DNA of 64,000 bases from contig NZ_CP047958.1 of NCBI RefSeq assembly GCF_014304815.1, forward strand, positions 2,108,001 to 2,172,000. Direction: 5' to 3'. Position 1 is the stretch's first letter; the number at the start of each line of letters is the position of its first letter. Source of the DNA: Synechococcus sp. MIT S9220. GTDB taxonomy: Bacteria > Cyanobacteriota > Cyanobacteriia > PCC-6307 > Cyanobiaceae. The notes beneath the pieces are model-generated. The model saw nothing but the letters and a program-made list of their open reading frames with translations, had not been told where the DNA came from and did not search any database. The position numbers and the translations under genes were made by a program. Positions 31,079 through 42,046 of this stretch are shown in pieces.

Positions 31079-32782
31079 TCAGAAACTGAAGGTGGTCTTC
31101 ACCAGACCGCCGAACTGATTGAAGCTCTCACCCTGAGTGACGGAGCCCAGAGGACGACTCAGATAGAAAAGAGCTGGGGTCACAGAGATATTGTCGGTAA
31201 CCTGGAACTGATACCAAAATTCCCAGGCATACTGACCATCGCGCGCCAGTTGCTCTTCAGCAGTGGAAGAGGAAATTCCATCAACGGCGTTGCCGGAGAG
31301 ATCAATTCCAGTCACGAACGCTTGCTGGCCAACAGCCATACCTGCGTTGTTGCCCTTCAGGAAGACGTCACTCCACTGAAGACCCACATACCAGGACTGA
31401 GAGGTTGCAGAATCAAATTCGTAACCCAAAAGTGTGCTGTCGCTTGCGCCAGAAGTGGAGCTAAGTCCCCAACCTGCGCTGACAGAGGGGACCCAGCCGG
31501 ATTGCTCAGGCTGCCACCAAGTACTCAACCCGAAACTGTTGGTATTCCCCAAAGTGCCCACATTTGCAGCCAAAGGCGTCCCGGTCGCTTCAAAGACAGA
31601 TCCCCAATTCTTGGAGCTGTAGTTGTAAGCAGCGGCAAGTCCCCAGTTGCTATCGGCATAAGCGAGTTGAACAGTACCTGTGCCCGCAGCTCCGTCGGTT
31701 GCGATACCTCCGGATCTTGGATTACTGGAATTTCCGTTAGAGGAAACGTAGTTCGCGCTAATACTGAAACCATCGTTCGTCCACCAGACACCAGCACCAG
31801 CACCGAGATTCAGGCTGTAAGCACCTGGCGCACCTGCATAGGTGAAGTAATCAAGGATGGTATCTGAGGGATAAGCACTTGGCCAAACAGCCAGCATGTC
31901 GTCTTGGCGCACCTTGCCACCAGCTGTGATCGTGAAATCACTACCTACAGGGAATTGGTAGAAGAGACGATCAATTTTAAGGGTGTCACTCTCATCAAAA
32001 GCAACTTCCAAGCTGGAAGGTGTCAGGTAAGTACCGCCTAACGCACTGGAAATTCCGGTCGAGCCGTCAAAACCGAACGCAGTACCGGTGAAGTTGCCAG
32101 TCCTGATACGTGTACGCAGCAGATCTTTACCAGTGAAGCTGGTATCAAGATCAAGCTTATAGTCGTAATTAAAGGTGGTGGCGCCGAGTGAATAGTTGGC
32201 AATATCTGACATCTTTTCCCTGCCGCCAGGGCCTGTCAAAGCGTTGGATCTACCAAACTGTTTGTCGACCTTGGCATCGCCGCCATAGCTGTTGGAGCCG
32301 ATCACAAAGGTGGCTGTTCCACTCATCTTTGTTGTGGTGGAGAACTGGGTTGCTTCCAGTTCGCCAACGCGGGCTTCCAGACCATCAACACGGCCCTTCA
32401 CGATGGCGAGTTCTTTTTCGAACTCTTTCATCAGACGCTTGAGCTCGTCGGTCACTTCGGTGACGCGGTCGAGACAGGCGTTCAGCAGTGCAGCCGCTTC
32501 AAAGCGGGTCATTGCACGGTTGCCACGGAAAGTGCCGTTGGGATAACCGGCAACACAGCCGTAGCGCTCGATCAGGTTGCTAAGAGCCTGATAAGCCCAG
32601 TCAGTCGGAAAGACATCGTTGAACTGGTTGATGCTGGTGACCTGCTCAGAAGCAGCCGTGCCATGGGACACAGAGGCGTAATCAGAAACACCGGCAACAT
32701 TGACTTCAGTCGCGCCAGCAGCCATCGGAGCCAGCAGGCCCAGGGCAGCAGGAGCAACCAGCAGTTGCTTGAACAATTTCAT
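31079..32782 (-). CDS. Major outer-membrane porin (SLH + OprB, Som type)
   Basis: A 567-residue porin. A signal peptide covers about 1-24 (cleavage near AGA). An SLH domain follows (about 50-110: NDVFPTDWAYQALSNLIERYGCVAGYPNG, FRGNRAMTRFEAAALLNACLDRV), which anchors to peptidoglycan-linked polymer. A coiled-coil spacer (about 110-145, VTDELKRLMKEFEKEL) leads to a beta-barrel ending in aromatic residue F (KTTFSF). This is the Som/iron-uptake porin group of cyanobacteria. Its ribosome-binding site overlaps a match to the Yfr1 sRNA core, and it has its own terminator. Confidence 0.92.
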   Translation of the reverse strand: MKLFKQLLVAPAALGLLAPMAAGATEVNVAGVSDYASVSHGTAASEQVTSINQFNDVFPTDWAYQALSNLIERYGCVAGYPNGTFRGNRAMTRFEAAALLNACLDRVTEVTDELKRLMKEFEKELAIVKGRVDGLEARVGELEATQFSTTTKMSGTATFVIGSNSYGGDAKVDKQFGRSNALTGPGGREKMSDIANYSLGATTFNYDYKLDLDTSFTGKDLLRTRIRTGNFTGTAFGFDGSTGISSALGGTYLTPSSLEVAFDESDTLKIDRLFYQFPVGSDFTITAGGKVRQDDMLAVWPSAYPSDTILDYFTYAGAPGAYSLNLGAGAGVWWTNDGFSISANYVSSNGNSSNPRSGGIATDGAAGTGTVQLAYADSNWGLAAAYNYSSKNWGSVFEATGTPLAANVGTLGNTNSFGLSTWWQPEQSGWVPSVSAGWGLSSTSGASDSTLLGYEFDSATSQSWYVGLQWSDVFLKGNNAGMAVGQQAFVTGIDLSGNAVDGISSSTAEEQLARDGQYAWEFWYQFQVTDNISVTPALFYLSRPLGSVTQGESFNQFGGLVKTTFSF

Positions 32783-32975: not shown

Positions 32976-33012
32976 AAAAACGATGCCCCCACCTGGAAAT
33001 CCAGCCGGGGGC
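32976..33012 (-). terminator. Terminator-like hairpin downstream of a tiny minus-strand frame
   Basis: GCCCCC pairs with GGGGGC and CTGG with CCAG around the loop AAAT, with a 2-base internal mismatch. On the minus strand five T follow after four bases. This would end a minus-strand transcript coming from about 33.1-33.2 kb, where no large gene exists. Confidence 0.45.
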
Positions 33013-33067
33013 TCTCGCCGGGTCCACTCTGGCGCGGAACCGATTGATCAGTCAGAAGAAAATGCCG

Positions 33068-33121
33068 TCAGCCGGCGTTCTCCGCGATCAGCAGACCCTG
33101 CATCAAAGAACTGGAACTCAT
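33068..33121 (-). CDS. Possible 17-residue peptide with strong ribosome-binding site
   Basis: An ATG at 33121 opens 17 codons (MSSSSLMQGLLIAENAG). It is preceded by AGGAGGTG, a full match to the anti-Shine-Dalgarno, 3-5 bases upstream, far better than most genes here. A terminator-like hairpin lies 56 bp past the stop. In the same frame a GTG further upstream would give about 45 residues. I recognise no family. It may be a genuine microprotein, a leader peptide, or chance. Confidence 0.3.
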   Translation of the reverse strand: MSSSSLMQGLLIAENAG

Positions 33122-33158
33122 GGACACCTCCTCCCGGATGGCTAAGTGAACGCCGGTA

Positions 33159-34805
33159 ATGCCTTCGAAGCCACCCAGACCGCGAACGATCGAAAATGCC
33201 TTCACATCACTGCGATCAGGACACTTGAACCATAACGGAACCGCAAAGCCTGCGCTGTTATGGCTCCTCACCCTGTTCCTTTGGCTACCTGGTCTAGGAA
33301 ACCAGCCACTGCGCGACTGGGATGAAGGCAGGGTCGCCAGCGTGGCTCGCTCCACAATCTCCCGATGGGATTGGGGGTCTGCCGGAGGCGACTGGTTGTT
33401 GGCCTGGAAATGGGACGAGGCTTATCTCAACAAGCCTCCTGGCCTGCACTGGCTGATCGGAGCATCCACTCAGTTCTTCGGCGACAACGAGTGGGCCGTG
33501 AGGCTGATGCCATGCCTGATCGCCAGCCTCGCCATCCCCTTGTTGCTGCTGCTGCGTCGTCAGCTGGGAGGTCATGGGGCAGAGAACAAGGCCATGCTTG
33601 CCGCCTTGATCTTGATGACGGTGATGCCCATGGCACGCCATGGGCGGCTAGCAATGCTGGACGGGAGCCTCGTGACCAGCGTTCTACTGCTTTGGACCGG
33701 TTGGCTTAGCAGCCGTTCTACGCCTTGGCATGGATTACTGGCAGGACTGGGAGCCACCGGAATCTTGATGCTGAAGGCGCCTGCACTGGTTGGGTTCGTG
33801 CTGGTCACAGCAGGTATTAGCGTCCTGGATCGGCGCCAAAGCAACTGGAGCGCCACTTCACTTCTCTGGGTTTGCGCAGGAATCAGCCCGGGGCTTGCCT
33901 GGCATATTTGGCACTTCGCTCAAAGAGGTAGTTCTGCGCTCGTGATGTGGGGCGGACAGGGCTTCAGTCGTGTAGCTGGTGTGGTGGGAGACAGCACCGG
34001 TGCTTTCATCATGCCGATCACTGAGGTGCTCGAGGGAGGCTGGCCATGGCTGCTCCTGCTTCCCCTTGGCATCAGGTTGGCCTGGCAACAGCGAAGTGAC
34101 TCAGCTGGACGCTGGGAACTGGGTCTGATGATGGGAAGCGCTGCGCTGGTGCTGCCGCTGCGCAGCCAACTGCCCTGGTACAGCCACCTTCTCTGGCCTG
34201 CCATTGCTTTGCTCTGTGCCGAAGGTCTACATCACGTACTGGTCTCCGGCAGACCCCGATGGATTGTCAAAATTTGGCTGCTGATTGGAGCAGCTTTGCT
34301 GCTTGCAAGTTTGATCATATTTCTCAGCAGTAAGACCATGGCAGTACCGCGATTGGCTGTGGTCTGCGCCGGGAGCGGCCTCCTCTTGGGAGGCCAACAA
34401 CTGATTCAAGCAACGCAACAACAGCGATGGCGTGGGCTCATCACACTGCTCATAGGGTGGGGTTCTGCCCTGCTTGCGCTTTGGCACAGCCAACTTTGGC
34501 TCTGGGAGCTGAATGAGAGCTGGGACCCTCGACCAGTTGCCAACGCAATCCGGGAGCTACCAGCCGACGCCAAGGTCGTCCTCGATGGACCCACACGACC
34601 GTCGATGGGCTGGTATGCGAATCGAAAAATGCTGCAGGACACTGACCAAATCCATGGCGAATACTGGGTAGTGAGTCAACAAGCTCCCAAGGGATGCGCA
34701 GTAGACGGGGCGGAACTGAAATCAAGTCAAGGGAAGGACCCTTGGCAGCTCTGGTACTGCCCATTCAATCCAGAGAACATCGAGGAAGGCCATGAAGGGC
34801 AATAG
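33159..34805 (+). CDS. ArnT/GT39-like membrane glycosyltransferase
   Basis: Up to 548 residues. After a polar start, LFLWLPGLGNQPLRDWDEGRVA gives the first helix and the acidic DWDEG loop typical of ArnT/PMT-type GT-C enzymes. KWDEAYLNKPPGLHWLIG is the next family motif. About ten more helices follow, then a soluble C-terminal end. It probably transfers a sugar from a polyprenyl carrier. The TTG at 33225, preceded by AGGA, is a credible shorter start (526 residues) that removes the poorly fitting first 22 residues. It overlaps the DUF2079 gene downstream by 14 bases. Confidence 0.82.
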   Translation: MPSKPPRPRTIENAFTSLRSGHLNHNGTAKPALLWLLTLFLWLPGLGNQPLRDWDEGRVASVARSTISRWDWGSAGGDWLLAWKWDEAYLNKPPGLHWLIGASTQFFGDNEWAVRLMPCLIASLAIPLLLLLRRQLGGHGAENKAMLAALILMTVMPMARHGRLAMLDGSLVTSVLLLWTGWLSSRSTPWHGLLAGLGATGILMLKAPALVGFVLVTAGISVLDRRQSNWSATSLLWVCAGISPGLAWHIWHFAQRGSSALVMWGGQGFSRVAGVVGDSTGAFIMPITEVLEGGWPWLLLLPLGIRLAWQQRSDSAGRWELGLMMGSAALVLPLRSQLPWYSHLLWPAIALLCAEGLHHVLVSGRPRWIVKIWLLIGAALLLASLIIFLSSKTMAVPRLAVVCAGSGLLLGGQQLIQATQQQRWRGLITLLIGWGSALLALWHSQLWLWELNESWDPRPVANAIRELPADAKVVLDGPTRPSMGWYANRKMLQDTDQIHGEYWVVSQQAPKGCAVDGAELKSSQGKDPWQLWYCPFNPENIEEGHEGQ

Positions 34806-36207
34806 CCAATCGTTGAAACTGCCGAATCAACTCTGGCTAATCAGTCTTCTGATCGGATTACTGGGATGGAGCTGTTCTGCTACCCGACATTGGCTGCTGC
34901 AAAGCAACGCCTACGACCTGGGGCTTTTTGATCAATGGGCTTGGTTGGTGAGCAAGGGTCTGCCACCGGTATCGACGATGGAAGGAGTCCACCTCCTGGC
35001 AGATCACGCCGCTTGGTGGCTCTATCTGAGTGGCGCGCTCTACGCCATCCAACCGTCACTGGATTGGTTACTGGCTTCCCAGGCCCTGGCGTTGAGCTTC
35101 ACAGCAATTCCGATCTGGATGCTCGCAGCTCAGGCGCGACTGCCACGCAAACTCTGCTGGCTGGCTTGTCTGCTGTGGTGGCTTCAACCAGTGGTCTTCA
35201 ACTGCAATCTGTTTGATTTCCACCCGGAAGTGTGGGGGATGCCTGTGCTGGCACTTGCTCTCTGGGCTGAGAGGGCGGGTCGTCCAATCCTGTGGATCAC
35301 GTTGCTGCTGAGTCTGCTGGGATTCAGAGACGGACTACTGCTGATCATTGCCGGCATGGCGATCGAACAAGCCTGGCGACGTCGCTGGCGCTGGAGCACA
35401 GCTGCCACCTTGGTGTCAGGAGGTTGGCTGTTGATGCTCAGCCGCTGGCTTTATCCCTGGCTGCGTCATGGCGAAGGACCCAAAGCAGCAGCACAGATGT
35501 TTGGACACCTAAATGGCAACCCGGTTGAGGTCCTCAGCAGTCTCGACTGGATCGGAGGAGCTTTTTACCTCCTGCTCCTTGCACTCCCATGCGGTGTTCT
35601 CTGGAAACGCACATCTTTACCGGTGTTGCTGATCGGATTGCCTCTGGTTGTTGTCAATCTGCTTTCTTCATCCAGCAGCTATCGCACGCTGATTCATCAC
35701 TACAGCCTGCCGCTTGCTGTCATCGCCGTTGTTGCTGCCATCGACGGCCTTGCCGCAGGCGAGAGGAAAGGCCGATCCCTATCGCGCAAGCGCCGTTCTC
35801 TCATCGTGGGATGGGCAATTCTCTGCTGGCTGGCATTAGCCAAACCTTGGTTCTTCACGGGGCCTTACCTTGACCGGCTCGGCATGCGTCAGGACGCGAC
35901 AGAAGCCATCAGCCTCGTGCCCTCTCGCGCACGCGTGTTGAGTACCAGTTACCTGGCACCTCATCTAACTCAACGCCAATGGATTGCCTTCCCGAAAAAA
36001 CAATCCGAAAAACTGCTGACAACCGGCAACTGGAAGGCATTACTGCTGAATCCAGATGATGCCGGTTGGGGTTCAACCAAAACAATCCAGACAGACTTAC
36101 TCAAGCAAGCGCATCGCAATGGCTGGAAATGCCGGAAGTGGTCTTCTGGCCTGGAACTCTGTCTGGCACCCGACGGAGCACAAGTGCCCCCGCTTCACAA
36201 TGAATGA
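34792..36207 (+). CDS. DUF2079 membrane protein A
   Basis: A 471-residue multi-helix membrane protein of the DUF2079 family, thought to be GT-C-like. It has SNAYDLGLFDQWAWLVSKG near the start, HLLADHAAWW, and FDFHPEVWGMPVLALALW near 140, the usual family motifs. Its ATG lies within the end of the ArnT-like gene. Its 3' 107 bases overlap the truncated minus-strand DUF2079 copy. A decayed copy of its 3' third is found at 38.5-38.95 kb. Substrate unknown. Confidence 0.83.
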   Translation: MKGNSQSLKLPNQLWLISLLIGLLGWSCSATRHWLLQSNAYDLGLFDQWAWLVSKGLPPVSTMEGVHLLADHAAWWLYLSGALYAIQPSLDWLLASQALALSFTAIPIWMLAAQARLPRKLCWLACLLWWLQPVVFNCNLFDFHPEVWGMPVLALALWAERAGRPILWITLLLSLLGFRDGLLLIIAGMAIEQAWRRRWRWSTAATLVSGGWLLMLSRWLYPWLRHGEGPKAAAQMFGHLNGNPVEVLSSLDWIGGAFYLLLLALPCGVLWKRTSLPVLLIGLPLVVVNLLSSSSSYRTLIHHYSLPLAVIAVVAAIDGLAAGERKGRSLSRKRRSLIVGWAILCWLALAKPWFFTGPYLDRLGMRQDATEAISLVPSRARVLSTSYLAPHLTQRQWIAFPKKQSEKLLTTGNWKALLLNPDDAGWGSTKTIQTDLLKQAHRNGWKCRKWSSGLELCLAPDGAQVPPLHNE

Positions 36208-36480
36208 GCTTGTAATCGCCTTTGGCAAGCAATTCTTGAACCTGATCGCGAATTTTGATCTGCACACGTCGCTCATGTTTGAAAACTGGCGCCAAGGGTG
36301 TGTAGTAAACGGGGAAAGTAACGACATAGACCACTGAACGCACCGCAACCTTCCGATCCTTGAATTGCACTGAATTCGGGAAACGAATCAACTCTTCCCG
36401 CTGAGCCAAAAGCGCTGCATCCGCCGAGTCAAAGGGGAAGAAAAGCAAAGGCAAGCTGAGCGCAAAAAGAAATCTATTAA
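36101..36480 (-). pseudogene. Truncated DUF2079 copy (C-terminal fragment with internal deletion)
   Basis: The minus strand encodes a C-terminal piece almost identical to that of the intact gene at 38849-40498 (LAQREELIRFPNSVQF, YYTPLAPVFKHERRVQIKI). Near 36412 the match stops and the frame joins directly to an internal membrane segment (LFALSLPLLF-P) resembling the middle of the gene at 36489-38093. About 100 or more residues between the two are missing, and there is no start. It overlaps the end of DUF2079 A on the other strand. Confidence 0.78.
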
Positions 36481-36488
36481 GACGTCTA

Positions 36489-38093
36489 TTAAAGTATATC
36501 GCAATTGACAGGATTACTGGAATTAGTCTGTAACTCGCTTCGACCTCGGCGAAGCACCAATGCTCCGCCATGGCAATGAATTAGCTGATAGTCAAAGTCA
36601 GTCGTCAATATACGAACATAGTCTAGAATTTTGGCCTGCTGCTCTTTCTCTTTTTTGAAGACTGGTGCTAATGGTGAATAGTAGCCAGGGAATGTCACAA
36701 CATATTCAACTGACTTTTGCAGACCCTTCCTGTCTATAAATCGCACAGACTGCGGGAAGCGGATCAATTCTTCTCTCTGGGCTAAAAGTGGGAGCAACGG
36801 TGTATCCGCTGCAACGCTGACTCCTTTTGGAACCTTTGCAAGCGCTTTCTTAGCTGCCTCGCGTCTCTCCAACATTGTTTGAGGAGAAACGTACGCCCAA
36901 GGGACAAAACTATCGGGAATAATTGCCGACAAACTCCGATGAGGATTACCGACGACAGTAAGAACCAGGCAGAGGCTTAGAGCTCCTGTCCACAAAGGAC
37001 GACAACGTCGACGTTGCCATGCCTGTGGATGAGATTCCCACCACAGCACAGATCCCAGATAAAGGCCAGGAACAAGTGCCAATACATAACGCAAATTGAT
37101 TGCCAAAGCCGTCTGTCCTTGGGAAACCAAAGCAACAAACAACGGTCCTGAAACCAAAAGCGCTGCATCCACCGAGACAAGGGGGACGAAAAACAAAGGC
37201 AAGCTGAGTGCCAACAAGAATCCAAGCGTTGCAAAAGGTGGAGATACCAACGCGAGTAACACTGCAAAAGGACGGCGCAAAATAGTGATCAATACACTGA
37301 AAGTTCCTCCTGAAGGGTCATCGACTAGGTGACCAAATTTCTCCGTCAGAAAACGATCAGCCAGTGAAGAGTCAACTGATGGCTGAATCCAACCTGTTAC
37401 CAAGAGAACCCATGCAAATGAAGCAATCATCAAACCCAATCCCCACCAACGCACATCGGAACGACGCACCAACGCCCAGAAACCAAGGGAAAACAACAAA
37501 AGGCCACTGTCCTCGCGTACGAGCAACAAAAGAGAAGCCGAGATCAGCACCTGCCAAATTCGACGTTCAAGCAAGCCCTCGACCACCAAAAAACCCAACA
37601 AAGGCAACCAGATCAGGTCATGAAAATTTTCGAGAACAGGGCCAATCACAGCCCCACTTAGGAAATAAGCCAAAGTCAACCGTAAAGCGAGCTCTGCCGG
37701 CAAACGACGCGATGCAATGCGCCACAACAACAAACCAGCAACAGTGAGTGTCGACACCTGCACCAGTGGAAGTGCCAAGGCACCTAGTAATGCCACCAAC
37801 GGGGAAACCGCCAACGTCAAAAAATTGGCATGTTGACCAAGATGCAGATAATTCACCCAGGGCAACGCACCCCCAACCTGTACCGGCCCTGAAAGAACTG
37901 ATGAGAGACTGCTTTCAAATGGTCGACCTTGAGCTGTTGACCAAAGCTCTTGCAAAAACAGGGCTTGGTCATAACTGGCACTAAGACTCTCGAGGCGCCA
38001 AATCTGAAGAAGGAAAGTTAGAGCCCAGAAGCCCGAAGCAAGCCAAACGATGGATTTCCAATAATTGACTGAGTAGGAATCAGAGTTCTGCAT
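36489..38093 (-). CDS. DUF2079 membrane protein B
   Basis: A full-length member, 534 residues from the ATG at 38093 (TTG at 38099 possible). It has ATYDQALFLQEL-type family sequence (ASYDQALFLQELWSTAQGRPF), LHLGQHANFLTLAVSPLV, ENFHDLIWLPLLGFLVVEG and about 11 helices, then a soluble end. It is a close paralog of the protein at 38849-40498 across its length. Its base composition is clearly more AT-rich than that paralog and most of the window, so it may have been brought in or replaced by recombination with a lower-GC relative. Confidence 0.85.
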   Translation of the reverse strand: MQNSDSYSVNYWKSIVWLASGFWALTFLLQIWRLESLSASYDQALFLQELWSTAQGRPFESSLSSVLSGPVQVGGALPWVNYLHLGQHANFLTLAVSPLVALLGALALPLVQVSTLTVAGLLLWRIASRRLPAELALRLTLAYFLSGAVIGPVLENFHDLIWLPLLGFLVVEGLLERRIWQVLISASLLLLVREDSGLLLFSLGFWALVRRSDVRWWGLGLMIASFAWVLLVTGWIQPSVDSSLADRFLTEKFGHLVDDPSGGTFSVLITILRRPFAVLLALVSPPFATLGFLLALSLPLFFVPLVSVDAALLVSGPLFVALVSQGQTALAINLRYVLALVPGLYLGSVLWWESHPQAWQRRRCRPLWTGALSLCLVLTVVGNPHRSLSAIIPDSFVPWAYVSPQTMLERREAAKKALAKVPKGVSVAADTPLLPLLAQREELIRFPQSVRFIDRKGLQKSVEYVVTFPGYYSPLAPVFKKEKEQQAKILDYVRILTTDFDYQLIHCHGGALVLRRGRSELQTNSSNPVNCDIL

Positions 38094-38348
38094 CAGCAAG
38101 GTGAAAACACTTTAATCAAAACCAAATAATGGCAACAAGAATCAACCAATCATACCTCTATATTGCATTTCATAAAAAGTTTCGCCATCACGACCACCTA
38201 GAAACTACTCAATGAATCCTGCAAGTAATTATATGATTAGCATGGTCTCTGCATCAAGGGTAGGTGCTACGCAAGGCTGAACAGATACCCATAGTAGCAA
38301 TACTCACACCACCGACTTTTAGAGGAGTTAGATCAGCAAATAGCTCTT
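38094..38348. other. AT-rich intergenic region
   Basis: About 255 bp, markedly AT-rich against the rest of the window. No gene, hairpin with T run, or repeat is recognised. It presumably carries the promoter of DUF2079 B and debris of the duplicated segment. Confidence 0.4.
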
Positions 38349-38540
38349 TTAAAAGGTATTTCCATGGGGTAGAACTTCTTCAGGGAAGATGAAGGTTTCG
38401 TGCGGCTGGTCAGCCGTTGCCATCCAGGCACACAGACCTTCATTCAGAAGGATGTTCTTGGTGCAGAAGGTCTCAAATCGGGGATCTTGTGCATCGAGGA
38501 TTTTCTTTGATTCGATGGCCTTGCCGCAGGCGAGCGACAA
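38349..38540 (-). pseudogene. psbD 3'-end remnant
   Basis: The minus strand encodes a diverged copy of the last 50 or so residues of the D2 protein: [19 protein letters not shown], then [19 protein letters not shown], against the intact gene's [19 protein letters not shown] and [19 protein letters not shown]. The frame remains open but the rest of psbD is missing. It abuts the DUF2079 A remnant at about 38540, which marks a duplication junction. The true psbD is at 40571-41626. Confidence 0.85.
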
Positions 38541-38955
38541 GGCCAATCTCTCATAACAGGATGGTCAATTCTCTACTGGCTGGCATTGGCCAAATCTTTT
38601 TTCGTCACTGAGCCTTACCTAGAACGACTCTGCATGCGTAAGGACGGAACAGAAGCAATCAGCCTCGTGTCACTTGACGCGCTTGTACTGAGCACTAGCT
38701 AACCAGTGTCTCACTCAGCCAACGCTAGTGGCTTCTATTCCCAAGGATCAGCCTAGAAACACCCCTGGGAAACAACCACCGGACGGCCATGGTGCTGAAT
38801 CCCGATGATGCCGATTGGGGTTCAACCAGAACAATTCATACACAGTACTCAAGCAAGCGCATCGCAATGGCTGAAAATGCCGGAAGTGGTCTTCTGGCCT
38901 GGAACTCTGTCTGGCACCCGACGGAGCACAAGTGCCCCCGCTTCACAATGAATGA
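38541..38955 (+). pseudogene. Decayed 3' remnant of DUF2079 A
   Basis: Plus-strand sequence matching the last third of the gene at 34792-36207: [16 protein letters not shown] against SLIVGWAILCWLALAK, ATEAISLV-like and LNPDDADWGSTRTI against LNPDDAGWGSTKTI. It has in-frame stops (TAA after VLSTS, and TAG later) and a frame change, and no start. It overlaps the C-terminal end of the minus-strand DUF2079 C gene just as the intact copy overlaps the truncated one. Confidence 0.83.
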
Positions 38956-40498
38956 GCTTGTAATCGCCTTTGGCAAGCAATTCTTGAACCTGATCGCGAA
39001 TTTTGATCTGCACACGTCGCTCATGTTTGAAAACTGGCGCCAAGGGTGTGTAGTAACCGGGGAAAGTAACGACATAGTCCACTGAACGCACCGCACCCTT
39101 CCGATCCTTGAATTGCACTGAATTCGGGAAACGAATCAACTCTTCCCGCTGAGCTAAAAGCGGAAGCAAAGGTGTATCCGCTGAAACACTTGCCCCATCT
39201 GGCACATAGGCCACCGCCTTCAGTGCTGCTTCGCGTCGGTGGAGCATGGTCTTCGGTGGGACATGAATCCAGGGAACAAAGCTGTCAGGAATCACCGCAG
39301 AGAAACTTCGGTGAGGGTTACCAACAATTGTGAGAACAAGCCCGAGAGTCACCGCACCAGTCCAGACCATGCGCACTTGGCGCTGATGCCAGGCCAGTGG
39401 GTGCGCTTGCCACCACAACACGGCGCCCAGATAGAGGCCAGGCACAAGAGCCAGGACGTAGCGCAGCGTGACGGCAAGAGCGGTGCGTCCTTGCGAAACA
39501 AGGGCAACAAACAGTGGTGCTGAGACCAGCAACAGAGCATCCAGGGAAAGAAGAGGGATGAATAGCAGCGGCAACGTGAGGGCAAGCACGAAACCGAGCG
39601 TGGCGCCAGGCGGTGAAACAAGTGCCTGAAGTACCGCCAGGGGCTCACGGAGCATCGCGAGCATCAGGGCAACCGTGCCTCGAGACGGATCCTCGACAAG
39701 ATGACCAAACTTCTCTGCGAGGAAGCGATCAGCCAAAGAAGAATCCACAGCCGGTTGGATCCAACCTGTGATGAGCAAGACCCATCCCAACGATGCAAGC
39801 ATCAGAGCAACGCCCCAATAACGCTCACGGGGGCGGCGCATTAGGGCCCACAGACCCAGAGAGAACAGAACCAGGCCGCTGTCCTCGCGCACCAGCAACA
39901 GGAACACAGCTGACAGCAAAACCTGCCACTGACGTCGTTCCATCAGGCCTTCCACCACGAGGAAACCAAGCAGAGGAATCCAGATCAGATCGTGAAAATT
40001 CTCAATCGCAGGACCGAGAACGGCCCCACTGAGGAAGTAGGCCACTGTGATCCTGAAGGCGACCTCAGAATCCAAACGGCGTGATGCGATTCGCCAAAGC
40101 AGCAGCCCAGCAGCAGTGAGGGCCGAAACCTGAACGAAGGGCAAGGCCCAGCGACCCATCAAAACCACCAACGGGGAGACCGTCAGAGTCAAGAAATTCG
40201 CGTGCTGACCAAGGTGGAGGTAATTCACCGAGGGGAGTGCACCATCACTCGTCACAGCTCCGGAAAGCACCGAAGACAAACTGCTTTCGAACGGTCGTCC
40301 CTGGGACGTTGACCAAAGCTCCTGAAGAAACAGAGCCTGGTCATAAGTGGCGCTGAGGCTCTCAAGGCGCCAAATCTGAATGAGAAAAGTGACCACCCAA
40401 AAGCCGCTGGCGAGCAGCAGTACAGATCTGGGCCAACTCACAGACCTCAGAGCGGGAGCGCGCATCGGATAACGGCTTGGTTCGGGGAATAAGGCCAT
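38849..40498 (-). CDS. DUF2079 membrane protein C
   Basis: A full-length member with 549 residues; a start at 40465 is also possible. It carries the same motifs as copy B (TYDQALFLQELWS, HLGQHANFLTL, ENFHDLIWIPLLGFLVVEG) with about 11 helices, and a soluble end LIHCEAGALVLRR. Its GC content is like the surrounding genome, unlike copy B. It follows psbD and its terminator on the same strand. The last 300 or so bases are nearly identical to the truncated copy at 36101-36412. Function unknown, likely a membrane glycan enzyme. Confidence 0.86.
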   Translation of the reverse strand: MALFPEPSRYPMRAPALRSVSWPRSVLLLASGFWVVTFLIQIWRLESLSATYDQALFLQELWSTSQGRPFESSLSSVLSGAVTSDGALPSVNYLHLGQHANFLTLTVSPLVVLMGRWALPFVQVSALTAAGLLLWRIASRRLDSEVAFRITVAYFLSGAVLGPAIENFHDLIWIPLLGFLVVEGLMERRQWQVLLSAVFLLLVREDSGLVLFSLGLWALMRRPRERYWGVALMLASLGWVLLITGWIQPAVDSSLADRFLAEKFGHLVEDPSRGTVALMLAMLREPLAVLQALVSPPGATLGFVLALTLPLLFIPLLSLDALLLVSAPLFVALVSQGRTALAVTLRYVLALVPGLYLGAVLWWQAHPLAWHQRQVRMVWTGAVTLGLVLTIVGNPHRSFSAVIPDSFVPWIHVPPKTMLHRREAALKAVAYVPDGASVSADTPLLPLLAQREELIRFPNSVQFKDRKGAVRSVDYVVTFPGYYTPLAPVFKHERRVQIKIRDQVQELLAKGDYKLIHCEAGALVLRRVPDRVPGQKTTSGIFSHCDALA

Positions 40499-40513
40499 TC
40501 AAAACCGGCCAAT

Positions 40514-40542
40514 AAAAAAAGGATGCCCTTAGGCATCCTTTT
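40514..40542 (-). terminator. Rho-independent terminator of psbD
   Basis: AAAAGGATGCC pairs perfectly with GGCATCCTTTT around CTTA, with a run of seven T on the minus strand. It lies 29 bp past the psbD stop. Confidence 0.9.
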
Positions 40543-40570
40543 GACGATCGGAAGGATCAACGTCTTGGAA

Positions 40571-41626
40571 TCAGAGAGCGTTACCGCGAGGCAGAACCTC
40601 TTCAGGGAAGACGAAGTTTTCGTGCGGCTGGTCAGCCGGTGCCATCCAGGCACGCAGACCTTCATTCAGAAGGATGTTCTTGGTGTAGAAGGTCTCAAAT
40701 TCGGGATCTTCTGCAGCGCGGATTTCCTGTGACACGAAGTCATAGGCGCGCAGGTTGAGGGCCAAACCGATGATGCCGATGGAGCTGGTCCACAGACCCA
40801 TCACAGGCACGAACAGCATGAAGAAGTGCAGCCAGCGCTTGTTGGAGAAGGCGATACCAAAGATCTGACTCCAGAAGCGGTTGGCGGTGACCATCGAATA
40901 GGTCTCTTCTTCCTGGGTGGGCTCGAACGCCTTGAAGGTGTTGGCCTGCTCACCATCCTCAAACAAGGTGTTTTCCACCGTTGCACCGTGAATGGCGCAA
41001 AGCAGTGCACCGCCGAGGATGCCGGCGACGCCCATCATGTGGAAGGGGTTGAGGGTCCAGTTGTGGAAGCCCTGCAGGAAGAGGAGGAAGCGGAAGATCG
41101 CTGCCACACCGAAGGAGGGCGCGAAGAACCAGCTGCTCTGGCCGAGGGGGTACATCAGGAAGACACTGACGAACACCGCAATCGGGCCGGAGAAGGCGAT
41201 GGCGTTGTAAGGGCGGATGCCGACCAGACGGGCAATCTCGAACTGACGCAGCATGAAGCCGATCAGTGCGAAAGCACCGTGCAGTGCAACGAAGGCCCAG
41301 AGGCCGCCGAGCTGACACCAGCGAACGAAATCACCCTGGGCTTCAGGGCCCCAGAGCAACAGAAGGCTGTGACCCATCGCATCAGCGGGGGTGGACACAG
41401 CAGCAGTCAGGAAGTTGCAACCTTCCAGGTACGACGAGGCAATGCCGTGGGTGTACCAGGAGGTGACAAAGGTGGTGCCTGTGAGCCAGCCACCGATGGC
41501 CAAGTAGGCCGTTGGGAAGAGAAGAATGCCGGACCAGCCGACAAAAACGAAGCGGTCGCGCTTGAGCCAGTCATCGAGGACGTCAAACCATCCCCGCTGT
41601 GGCGCGCGTCCTACAGCGATCGTCAT
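40571..41626 (-). CDS. psbD: Photosystem II D2 protein
   Basis: Reaction-centre core subunit that binds P680, pheophytin, QA and non-haem iron. It has 351 residues. All the expected sequence is present: the [22 protein letters not shown] start, [77 protein letters not shown], and the [12 protein letters not shown] ending. psbC is not next to it, so this is the stand-alone copy; cyanobacteria usually have another in a psbDC operon. It has its own terminator. A perfect 12-bp palindrome, GCTTCATGAAGC, lies in the leader at 41634-41645. Confidence 0.97.
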
Positions 41627-41782
41627 GAGGGGAGCTTCATGAAGCGTTACGTGACGAGCCTAGTTGGAGTCAGCGATTCTGTGGGCACTGATTCAGAAAA
41701 TGAGCGCGACATAAGTAGAAATGCCCATTACTACACCGCTGCCTTTCATTCGCGAAGATGAACGCAGTGAAGAGATCCAACC

Positions 41783-42046
41783 GTGTACGTGATTGAGCTG
41801 GCTCTGCGCATGAGCCCCATGCCCGTGTCCGTGCAGCGCAAGGAGCATGACGCTGCAGAGGGGCTCTATCAACAAGTGCGGACGGCCCTCGAGCAGGGGC
41901 AACCACGATTGCTCGAACTCACCTGCGAGAAGGTTGAAGGAAAACGGCTCAGTGTGCTGACCAGCGATTTGCTTGCGGTGCAGATTTACGAAAAAACAGC
42001 CGCAGCGGGTGGCAGCAAGCGCCCTGGCTTCTCTCTGGATGGCTGA
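41783..42046 (+). CDS. UPF0367 family protein
   Basis: An 87-residue soluble protein found across cyanobacteria and called UPF0367. Starting at a GTG, it reads [50 protein letters not shown], and [11 protein letters not shown], as in the family. Its function is not known. It is divergent from psbD with about 156 bp between, and lies 6 bp before the ABC ATPase gene, so the two probably form an operon. Confidence 0.85.

What the first reader, a model, noticed from the sequence alone, without database searches (positions are those of the whole stretch)
36099..36412. Near-identical 310-bp patch between two DUF2079 3' ends: probable recent gene conversion
About 36099-36412 and 38847-39162 match with only about five differences by eye, yet sequence on both sides of the patch is much more diverged (the DUF2079 A 3' region before it, membrane-domain sequence after it). 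Such sharp limits point to a recent copy or conversion event laid over an older duplication. The patch covers the ends of two convergent genes at once: the minus-strand C-terminus and, antisense to it, the last residues of DUF2079 A.
Basis: seen in the sequence. Interest (0 to 1): 0.58.

Follow-up and report, generated by a model that had tools for sequence, protein, structure and literature searches.

The report
Copied gene end in mosaic duplication
Two neighbouring membrane-protein genes in a marine cyanobacterium share a 315-base end that is nearly identical, probably because one end was recently copied over the other inside an older, scrambled duplication; this is ordinary genome evolution, neatly recorded.

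Summary
The repeat is real. Window 36098-36412 and 38846-39160 match at 310 of 315 positions; just left, the homologous A/A' sequence is 73.7% identical over 334 ungapped positions (permutation 0 of 10,000). Relative L003 differs from both copies by about 17% inside the patch, so constraint does not explain the identity. The right limit is no divergence border: there copy 1 switches to sequence like the middle of neighbouring gene B. The surroundings are a mosaic: intact A, C-type stub R, decayed A tail antisense to B, intact B, decayed psbD fragment, pseudo-A tail (A'), intact C, psbD. Four relatives' contigs checked have A, one convergent C and psbD. The patch (1.6% divergence) is younger than the other duplicated pieces compared (about 10-26%). 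Against L003 it evolved as a functional C end, so the likely direction is C to A/R. Best reading: a recent short gene conversion over an older mosaic duplication (0.58). Chief rival: one insertion that duplicated 315 bp of its target (0.25). Ordinary in kind.

The parts
34792..36207 (+). DUF2079 gene A, intact; its last 36 codons (from 36097/36098) lie in the patch
   Evidence: PF09852, 335 bits; dN 0.093, dS 0.427 against L003
36098..36412 (.). patch copy 1: A tail on +, C-type C-terminus on -; the match to copy 2 runs on to 36414
   Evidence: 310 of 315 identical to copy 2
36101..36571 (-). stub ORF R: C-type C-terminus joined to a B-mid-type piece; no whole DUF2079 gene
   Evidence: (21.9 bits, below the Pfam cut-off of 28.2)
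36406..36474 (-). B-mid-type piece of R, 59 of 69 positions as in 37154-37222; joined to the patch over AAAAGCG (36408-36414)
36484..36570 (+). decayed A tail (A''), antisense to the 3' end of B, with in-frame stops; left edge uncertain by about 15 bp
36489..38099 (-). DUF2079 gene B, intact; 74% aa to C, synonymous sites near saturation against C (pS 0.71); GC3 0.46
38349..38510 (-). decayed 3' fragment of psbD (14 of 143 core positions differ; 11 changed codons nonsynonymous, 2 synonymous)
38512..38845 (+). A', pseudogene copy of the 3' part of A, with indels
38846..39160 (.). patch copy 2: A' tail on +, C-terminus of C on -
38849..40498 (-). DUF2079 gene C, intact; 89% aa to L003 (G030)
40571..41626 (-). 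psbD, the type of gene the fragment derives from; a second psbD elsewhere in the genome is 99% identical

Best explanation
The locus is an older mosaic duplication of the 'A > < C < psbD' module on which a short, recent gene conversion (or equivalent copying of about 315 bp) has been laid. Shown: the structure, the identity step at 36098/38846, and that the patch is less diverged than the other duplicated pieces. Inferred: the 3' end of functional C, with the A' tail on its other strand, was the template and the A/R end was overwritten. The tract stopped on the right where homology ends (the R breakpoint) and on the left where A and A' are about 26% diverged. Afterwards R gained three changes as non-functional DNA, and C one or two.
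For: Identity 98.4% in the patch, 73.7% to the left, 0 of 10,000 permutations. L003 is 83% to both copies inside the patch and 78% (A) or 71% (A') outside, so the patch is not a slow region. In C's frame, C against L003 in the part of the patch not shared with A has pS 0.52 and pN 0.07: the template evolved as coding C. Polarised by L003, copy 1 is derived at 36309, 36330 and 36348 (G>V, D>V, G>V in R) and copy 2 at 36126; 36407 is unresolved. The psbD fragment, B-mid piece and A/A' are all more diverged than the patch. L003 (G030), L004 (UW140), L005 (UW105) and L023 (G005) show A, one C and psbD with no insert.
Against: The ages inside the array disagree. B splits before the C/L003 split (a B+C clade is rejected, p-AU 6e-5; pS 0.71 against 0.39), whereas A' falls with A and G017, excluding L003 (99/97), and the psbD fragment is only 10% diverged. 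One tandem duplication therefore does not explain the array, and part of it (B) may be foreign. Homology on the right side of the tract is missing in copy 1. Direction rests on selection in one frame and few sites. No strain with both copies unconverted was found.
Confidence: 0.58

Rival explanations
1. One recent insertion. Resident A and C were contiguous (A through 36412, then C from 39161). A foreign piece (B-mid piece, A'' tail, B, psbD fragment, A') entered by homologous crossover on the A'/A side and by a 7-bp microhomology join on the other, so that 315 bp of resident sequence is now on both sides. No conversion is needed; the identity step lies only in the incoming A'.
For: Copy 1 up to 36412 and copy 2 from 38846 on both match the unbroken A-C end of L003; AAAAGCG is shared at the join; B lies outside C+L003 and has low GC3.
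Against: The incoming piece would already have had to hold a decayed A'' tail, a decayed psbD fragment and A'. A' groups with A and G017 rather than outside L003 (p-AU 0.014 against it lying outside), unlike B, so a single donor lineage fits poorly. AAAAGCG is not rare: 6 in the window against 7.9 expected, so the microhomology is weak evidence.
Confidence: 0.25
2. Recurrent concerted evolution: the repeat is old and the two ends have been homogenised repeatedly, also in the G017 lineage.
For: The G017 contig stops at the equivalent of 36095, 2 bp before the patch; A' tends to branch before the A/G017 split (site patterns 15 against 4 and 2; support 77/85). psbD copies in cyanobacteria are reported to evolve in concert (PMC6053082, passages).
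Against: A+A' as a clade is not rejected (p-AU 0.20). The contig end may be chance or assembly trimming. Four small G017 contigs fetched read entirely N, so it could not be tested. Searches of G017 found neither B nor C.
Confidence: 0.12
3. Assembly artefact.
For: A 315-bp repeat twice within 3 kb; no reads were available.
Against: Single-contig genome, two copies with 5 differences and distinct flanks on both sides.
Confidence: 0.04

Closest known systems
Gene conversion / concerted evolution between bacterial paralogues (psbA, psbD in cyanobacteria; PMC6053082, passages seen)
   Same: Paralogous copies in one genome more alike than to orthologues
   Different: Here only 315 bp at the overlapping ends of two convergent genes, and one partner is a stub
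Insertion-duplication by homology-facilitated illegitimate recombination (recalled, no call)
   Same: Homology on one side, short microhomology on the other, duplicated target
   Different: The pieces of the insert are of unequal age, and the microhomology is no rarer than chance
DUF2079 membrane proteins (PF09852)
   Same: A, B and C match far above the Pfam cut-off
   Different: R is a stub below the cut-off

Membership tests
Gene conversion between paralogues | Paralogues more alike in a tract than outside it, beyond chance | tested here: met
   98.4% against 73.7%, 0 of 10,000 permutations
Gene conversion between paralogues | Tract not explained by slow evolution | tested here: met
   L003 82.9% and 83.5% to the two copies inside the patch
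Gene conversion between paralogues | Homologous sequence on both sides of the tract in both copies | tested here: not met
   homologous on the left only; on the right copy 1 is rearranged. This lowers the claim but does not exclude a tract that ends at the limit of homology
Gene conversion between paralogues | Relatives that carry the duplication with unconverted copies | tested here: inconclusive
   of 99 genomes searched (55 with a match) only G000 has two C-type matches at 50% identity or more; G017 partly unreadable
Insertion-duplication | Close insert-free relative and a foreign insert | tested here: inconclusive
   L003/G030 is insert-free but distant (dS about 0.4-0.6); B foreign-like, A' not
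DUF2079 (PF09852) | Match above Pfam's gathering score | tested here: met
   A 335, B 423, C 426 bits; R 21.9 of 28.2 needed, not met

The most novel reading that the evidence does not exclude
The overlap of two convergent genes acted as an archive. After duplication the A' reading frame was dead, but its tail stayed intact because it is antisense to the living C gene. A, whose own original tail had decayed to a premature stop (A'', now antisense to B), was then repaired with a full-length end from that archive.
Probability: 0.07. Interest if true: 0.5.

Novelty: new member of a known kind. Interest (0 to 1): 0.22.

Why it matters
It is a clear, roughly datable record of how duplication, decay and short-tract copying build a gene cluster next to psbD. 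It also warns that the 3' ends of such paralogues can have a different history from the rest of the gene, which would mislead trees. If the archive reading held, overlapping genes would be a way in which a dead copy keeps usable sequence.

Tried and rejected
Slow evolution of the overlap: rejected, L003 differs by about 17% inside the patch. A single simple tandem duplication of A-C-psbD: rejected as the whole story, because B is too old, A' younger and the psbD fragment younger still. RNA element: no Rfam family in 34700-41700 at gathering score. Tandem repeat: in 33000-42000 only a 16-bp period at 35153-35184. Viral source for B: 7 stretches matched a pattern in the viral collection, none encodes a relative. 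Solved relative of C by sequence: none convincing (one chain, E 0.5). Significance of the 7-mer at the join: none on its own (6 in the window, 7.9 expected). Calibrating the G017 contig end: the pipeline papers (passages only; PMC5519541, PMC6122165) report SPAdes --careful --sc, and PMC5519541 also 100-bp end trimming and a 2000-bp cut. Those passages do not state the assembly k-mer length, and G017 is unnamed, so the contig end stays only suggestive. Note entry 2 argued from a k of 99; that was recalled and is not borne out by any search. Papers: none held has both DUF2079 and Synechococcus; 'gene conversion' + 'overlapping genes' + 'convergent' + 'tandem duplication' gave five papers, three listed, none on this by title. 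A search on MITS9220, made on a guess at the strain, gave nothing that I used.

One search scored at most 9 first-look candidates per genome, so its lists are not exhaustive. The 5/52 core of the B-mid piece was first counted by eye and recounted by script (5/52 core, 10/69 whole).

Full report
Setting. The window lies in a 2,424,175-base single-contig genome. Of the 18 loci that encode relatives of its gene C in the genome collection, nearly all have Synechococcus titles. The strain was not established.

Observation. Aligning 36098-36412 with 38846-39160 gives 310 of 315 identical positions; the match then runs on to 36414/39162. The 334 ungapped positions to the left (A against the pseudogene copy A') are 73.7% identical, and 60-base windows fall to 0.53-0.59 at 35921-36040. 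Among 174 variable sites of copy 1, copy 2 and L003, the best stretch of agreement between copies 1 and 2 was not reached in 10,000 permutations by either of two scores. L003 is 82.9% and 83.5% identical to the copies inside the patch, so the patch is not slow; outside it is 78.4% to A and 71.3% to A'.

Anatomy. From left to right: a PMT-like gene (33159-34805), A (34792-36207), the patch, stub R, B (36489-38099, -), a psbD 3' fragment (38349-38510), A' (38512-38845), C (38849-40498, -) and psbD (40571-41626, -). R is a C-type C-terminus joined to about 69 bp like the middle of B; the join falls on AAAAGCG, a 7-mer that is no commoner or rarer in the window than chance gives. On the other strand of B's 3' end is a decayed A tail with stops (A''); its left edge is near the point homologous to the patch's left edge, but only to within about 15 bp. 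L003 runs continuously from the PMT-like gene through A into a single C and the psbD end; L004 (UW140), L005 (UW105) and L023 (G005) show the same order of A, C and psbD. In two other genomes (G016, G025) C and psbD lie about 2-3 kb apart. In one search, 55 of 99 genomes have a match to C at the cut used, and only this genome has two of 50% identity or more.

Ages. The psbD fragment decays as a pseudogene: 11 nonsynonymous and 2 synonymous codon changes. The patch is thus the youngest of the duplicated pieces compared.

Origin of the array. B is sister to C+L003 (100/99), and a B+C clade is rejected (p-AU 6e-5); B has a long branch (0.34), which the tool flags as of unsure place. C-B synonymous difference is pS 0.71 against 0.39 for C-L003. 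A' groups with A and G017, excluding L003 (99/97); a tree with A' outside A+G017+L003 is rejected (p-AU 0.014), while A+A' is not (0.20). The pieces do not share one date, so I read the array as a mosaic in which B is an older or foreign allele. B has GC3 0.46, against 0.59-0.60 for C and A, which fits a foreign origin or long drift.

Direction. In the part of the patch where only C is coded, C against L003 has pS 0.52 and pN 0.07, like a functional gene. Three of the five differences are derived in copy 1 and change residues of R that are invariant or mostly kept in the relatives aligned (G, D, G to V); one is derived in C; one (36407) is unresolved and may belong to the join. This favours C as the template. 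The A frame in the 36-codon tail has pN 0.109 and pS 0.195 against L003, too few changes to tell.

Sister evidence. G017, 89% identical in the A 3' region, ends its contig at the equivalent of 36095. The other end lies in a gene that I read as porin-like (no family search), whose 5' region has two more copies in our genome. A repeat at the patch would cause such an end, but single-cell style trimming is uncertain and four small contigs were unreadable. Searches of G017 found neither B nor C, which means little for an 80% complete genome.

Verdict. The near-identity is real and needs recent copying. The left limit is a true identity step; the right limit is a breakpoint. Recent conversion from C's end over an older mosaic is the best reading (0.58); a single insertion with target duplication is the main rival (0.25).

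Noticed in passing
40571-41626 and genome 787001-788063: The two psbD copies are 99% identical, as expected from the concerted evolution reported for psbD (PMC6053082, passages; identity).
   Followed up: partly
38349-38510: A decayed psbD 3' fragment between two DUF2079 genes. The 30 other genus genomes showed at most two psbD-type matches each, though not all candidates were scored.
   Followed up: yes
31079-32782: Porin-like gene (my reading, no family search) whose 5' region has two further copies in the genome (93% and 86%).
   Followed up: no
L006 5110-6738: A C-type DUF2079 gene on a contig labelled Gammaproteobacteria that also carries psbD-type sequence and falls among Synechococcus in the tree: probably a misbinned contig.
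   Followed up: no
L097 (G017 contig 66): The first and last 60 bases of this contig are reverse complements of each other, as in amplification chimeras of single-cell genomes.
   Followed up: no
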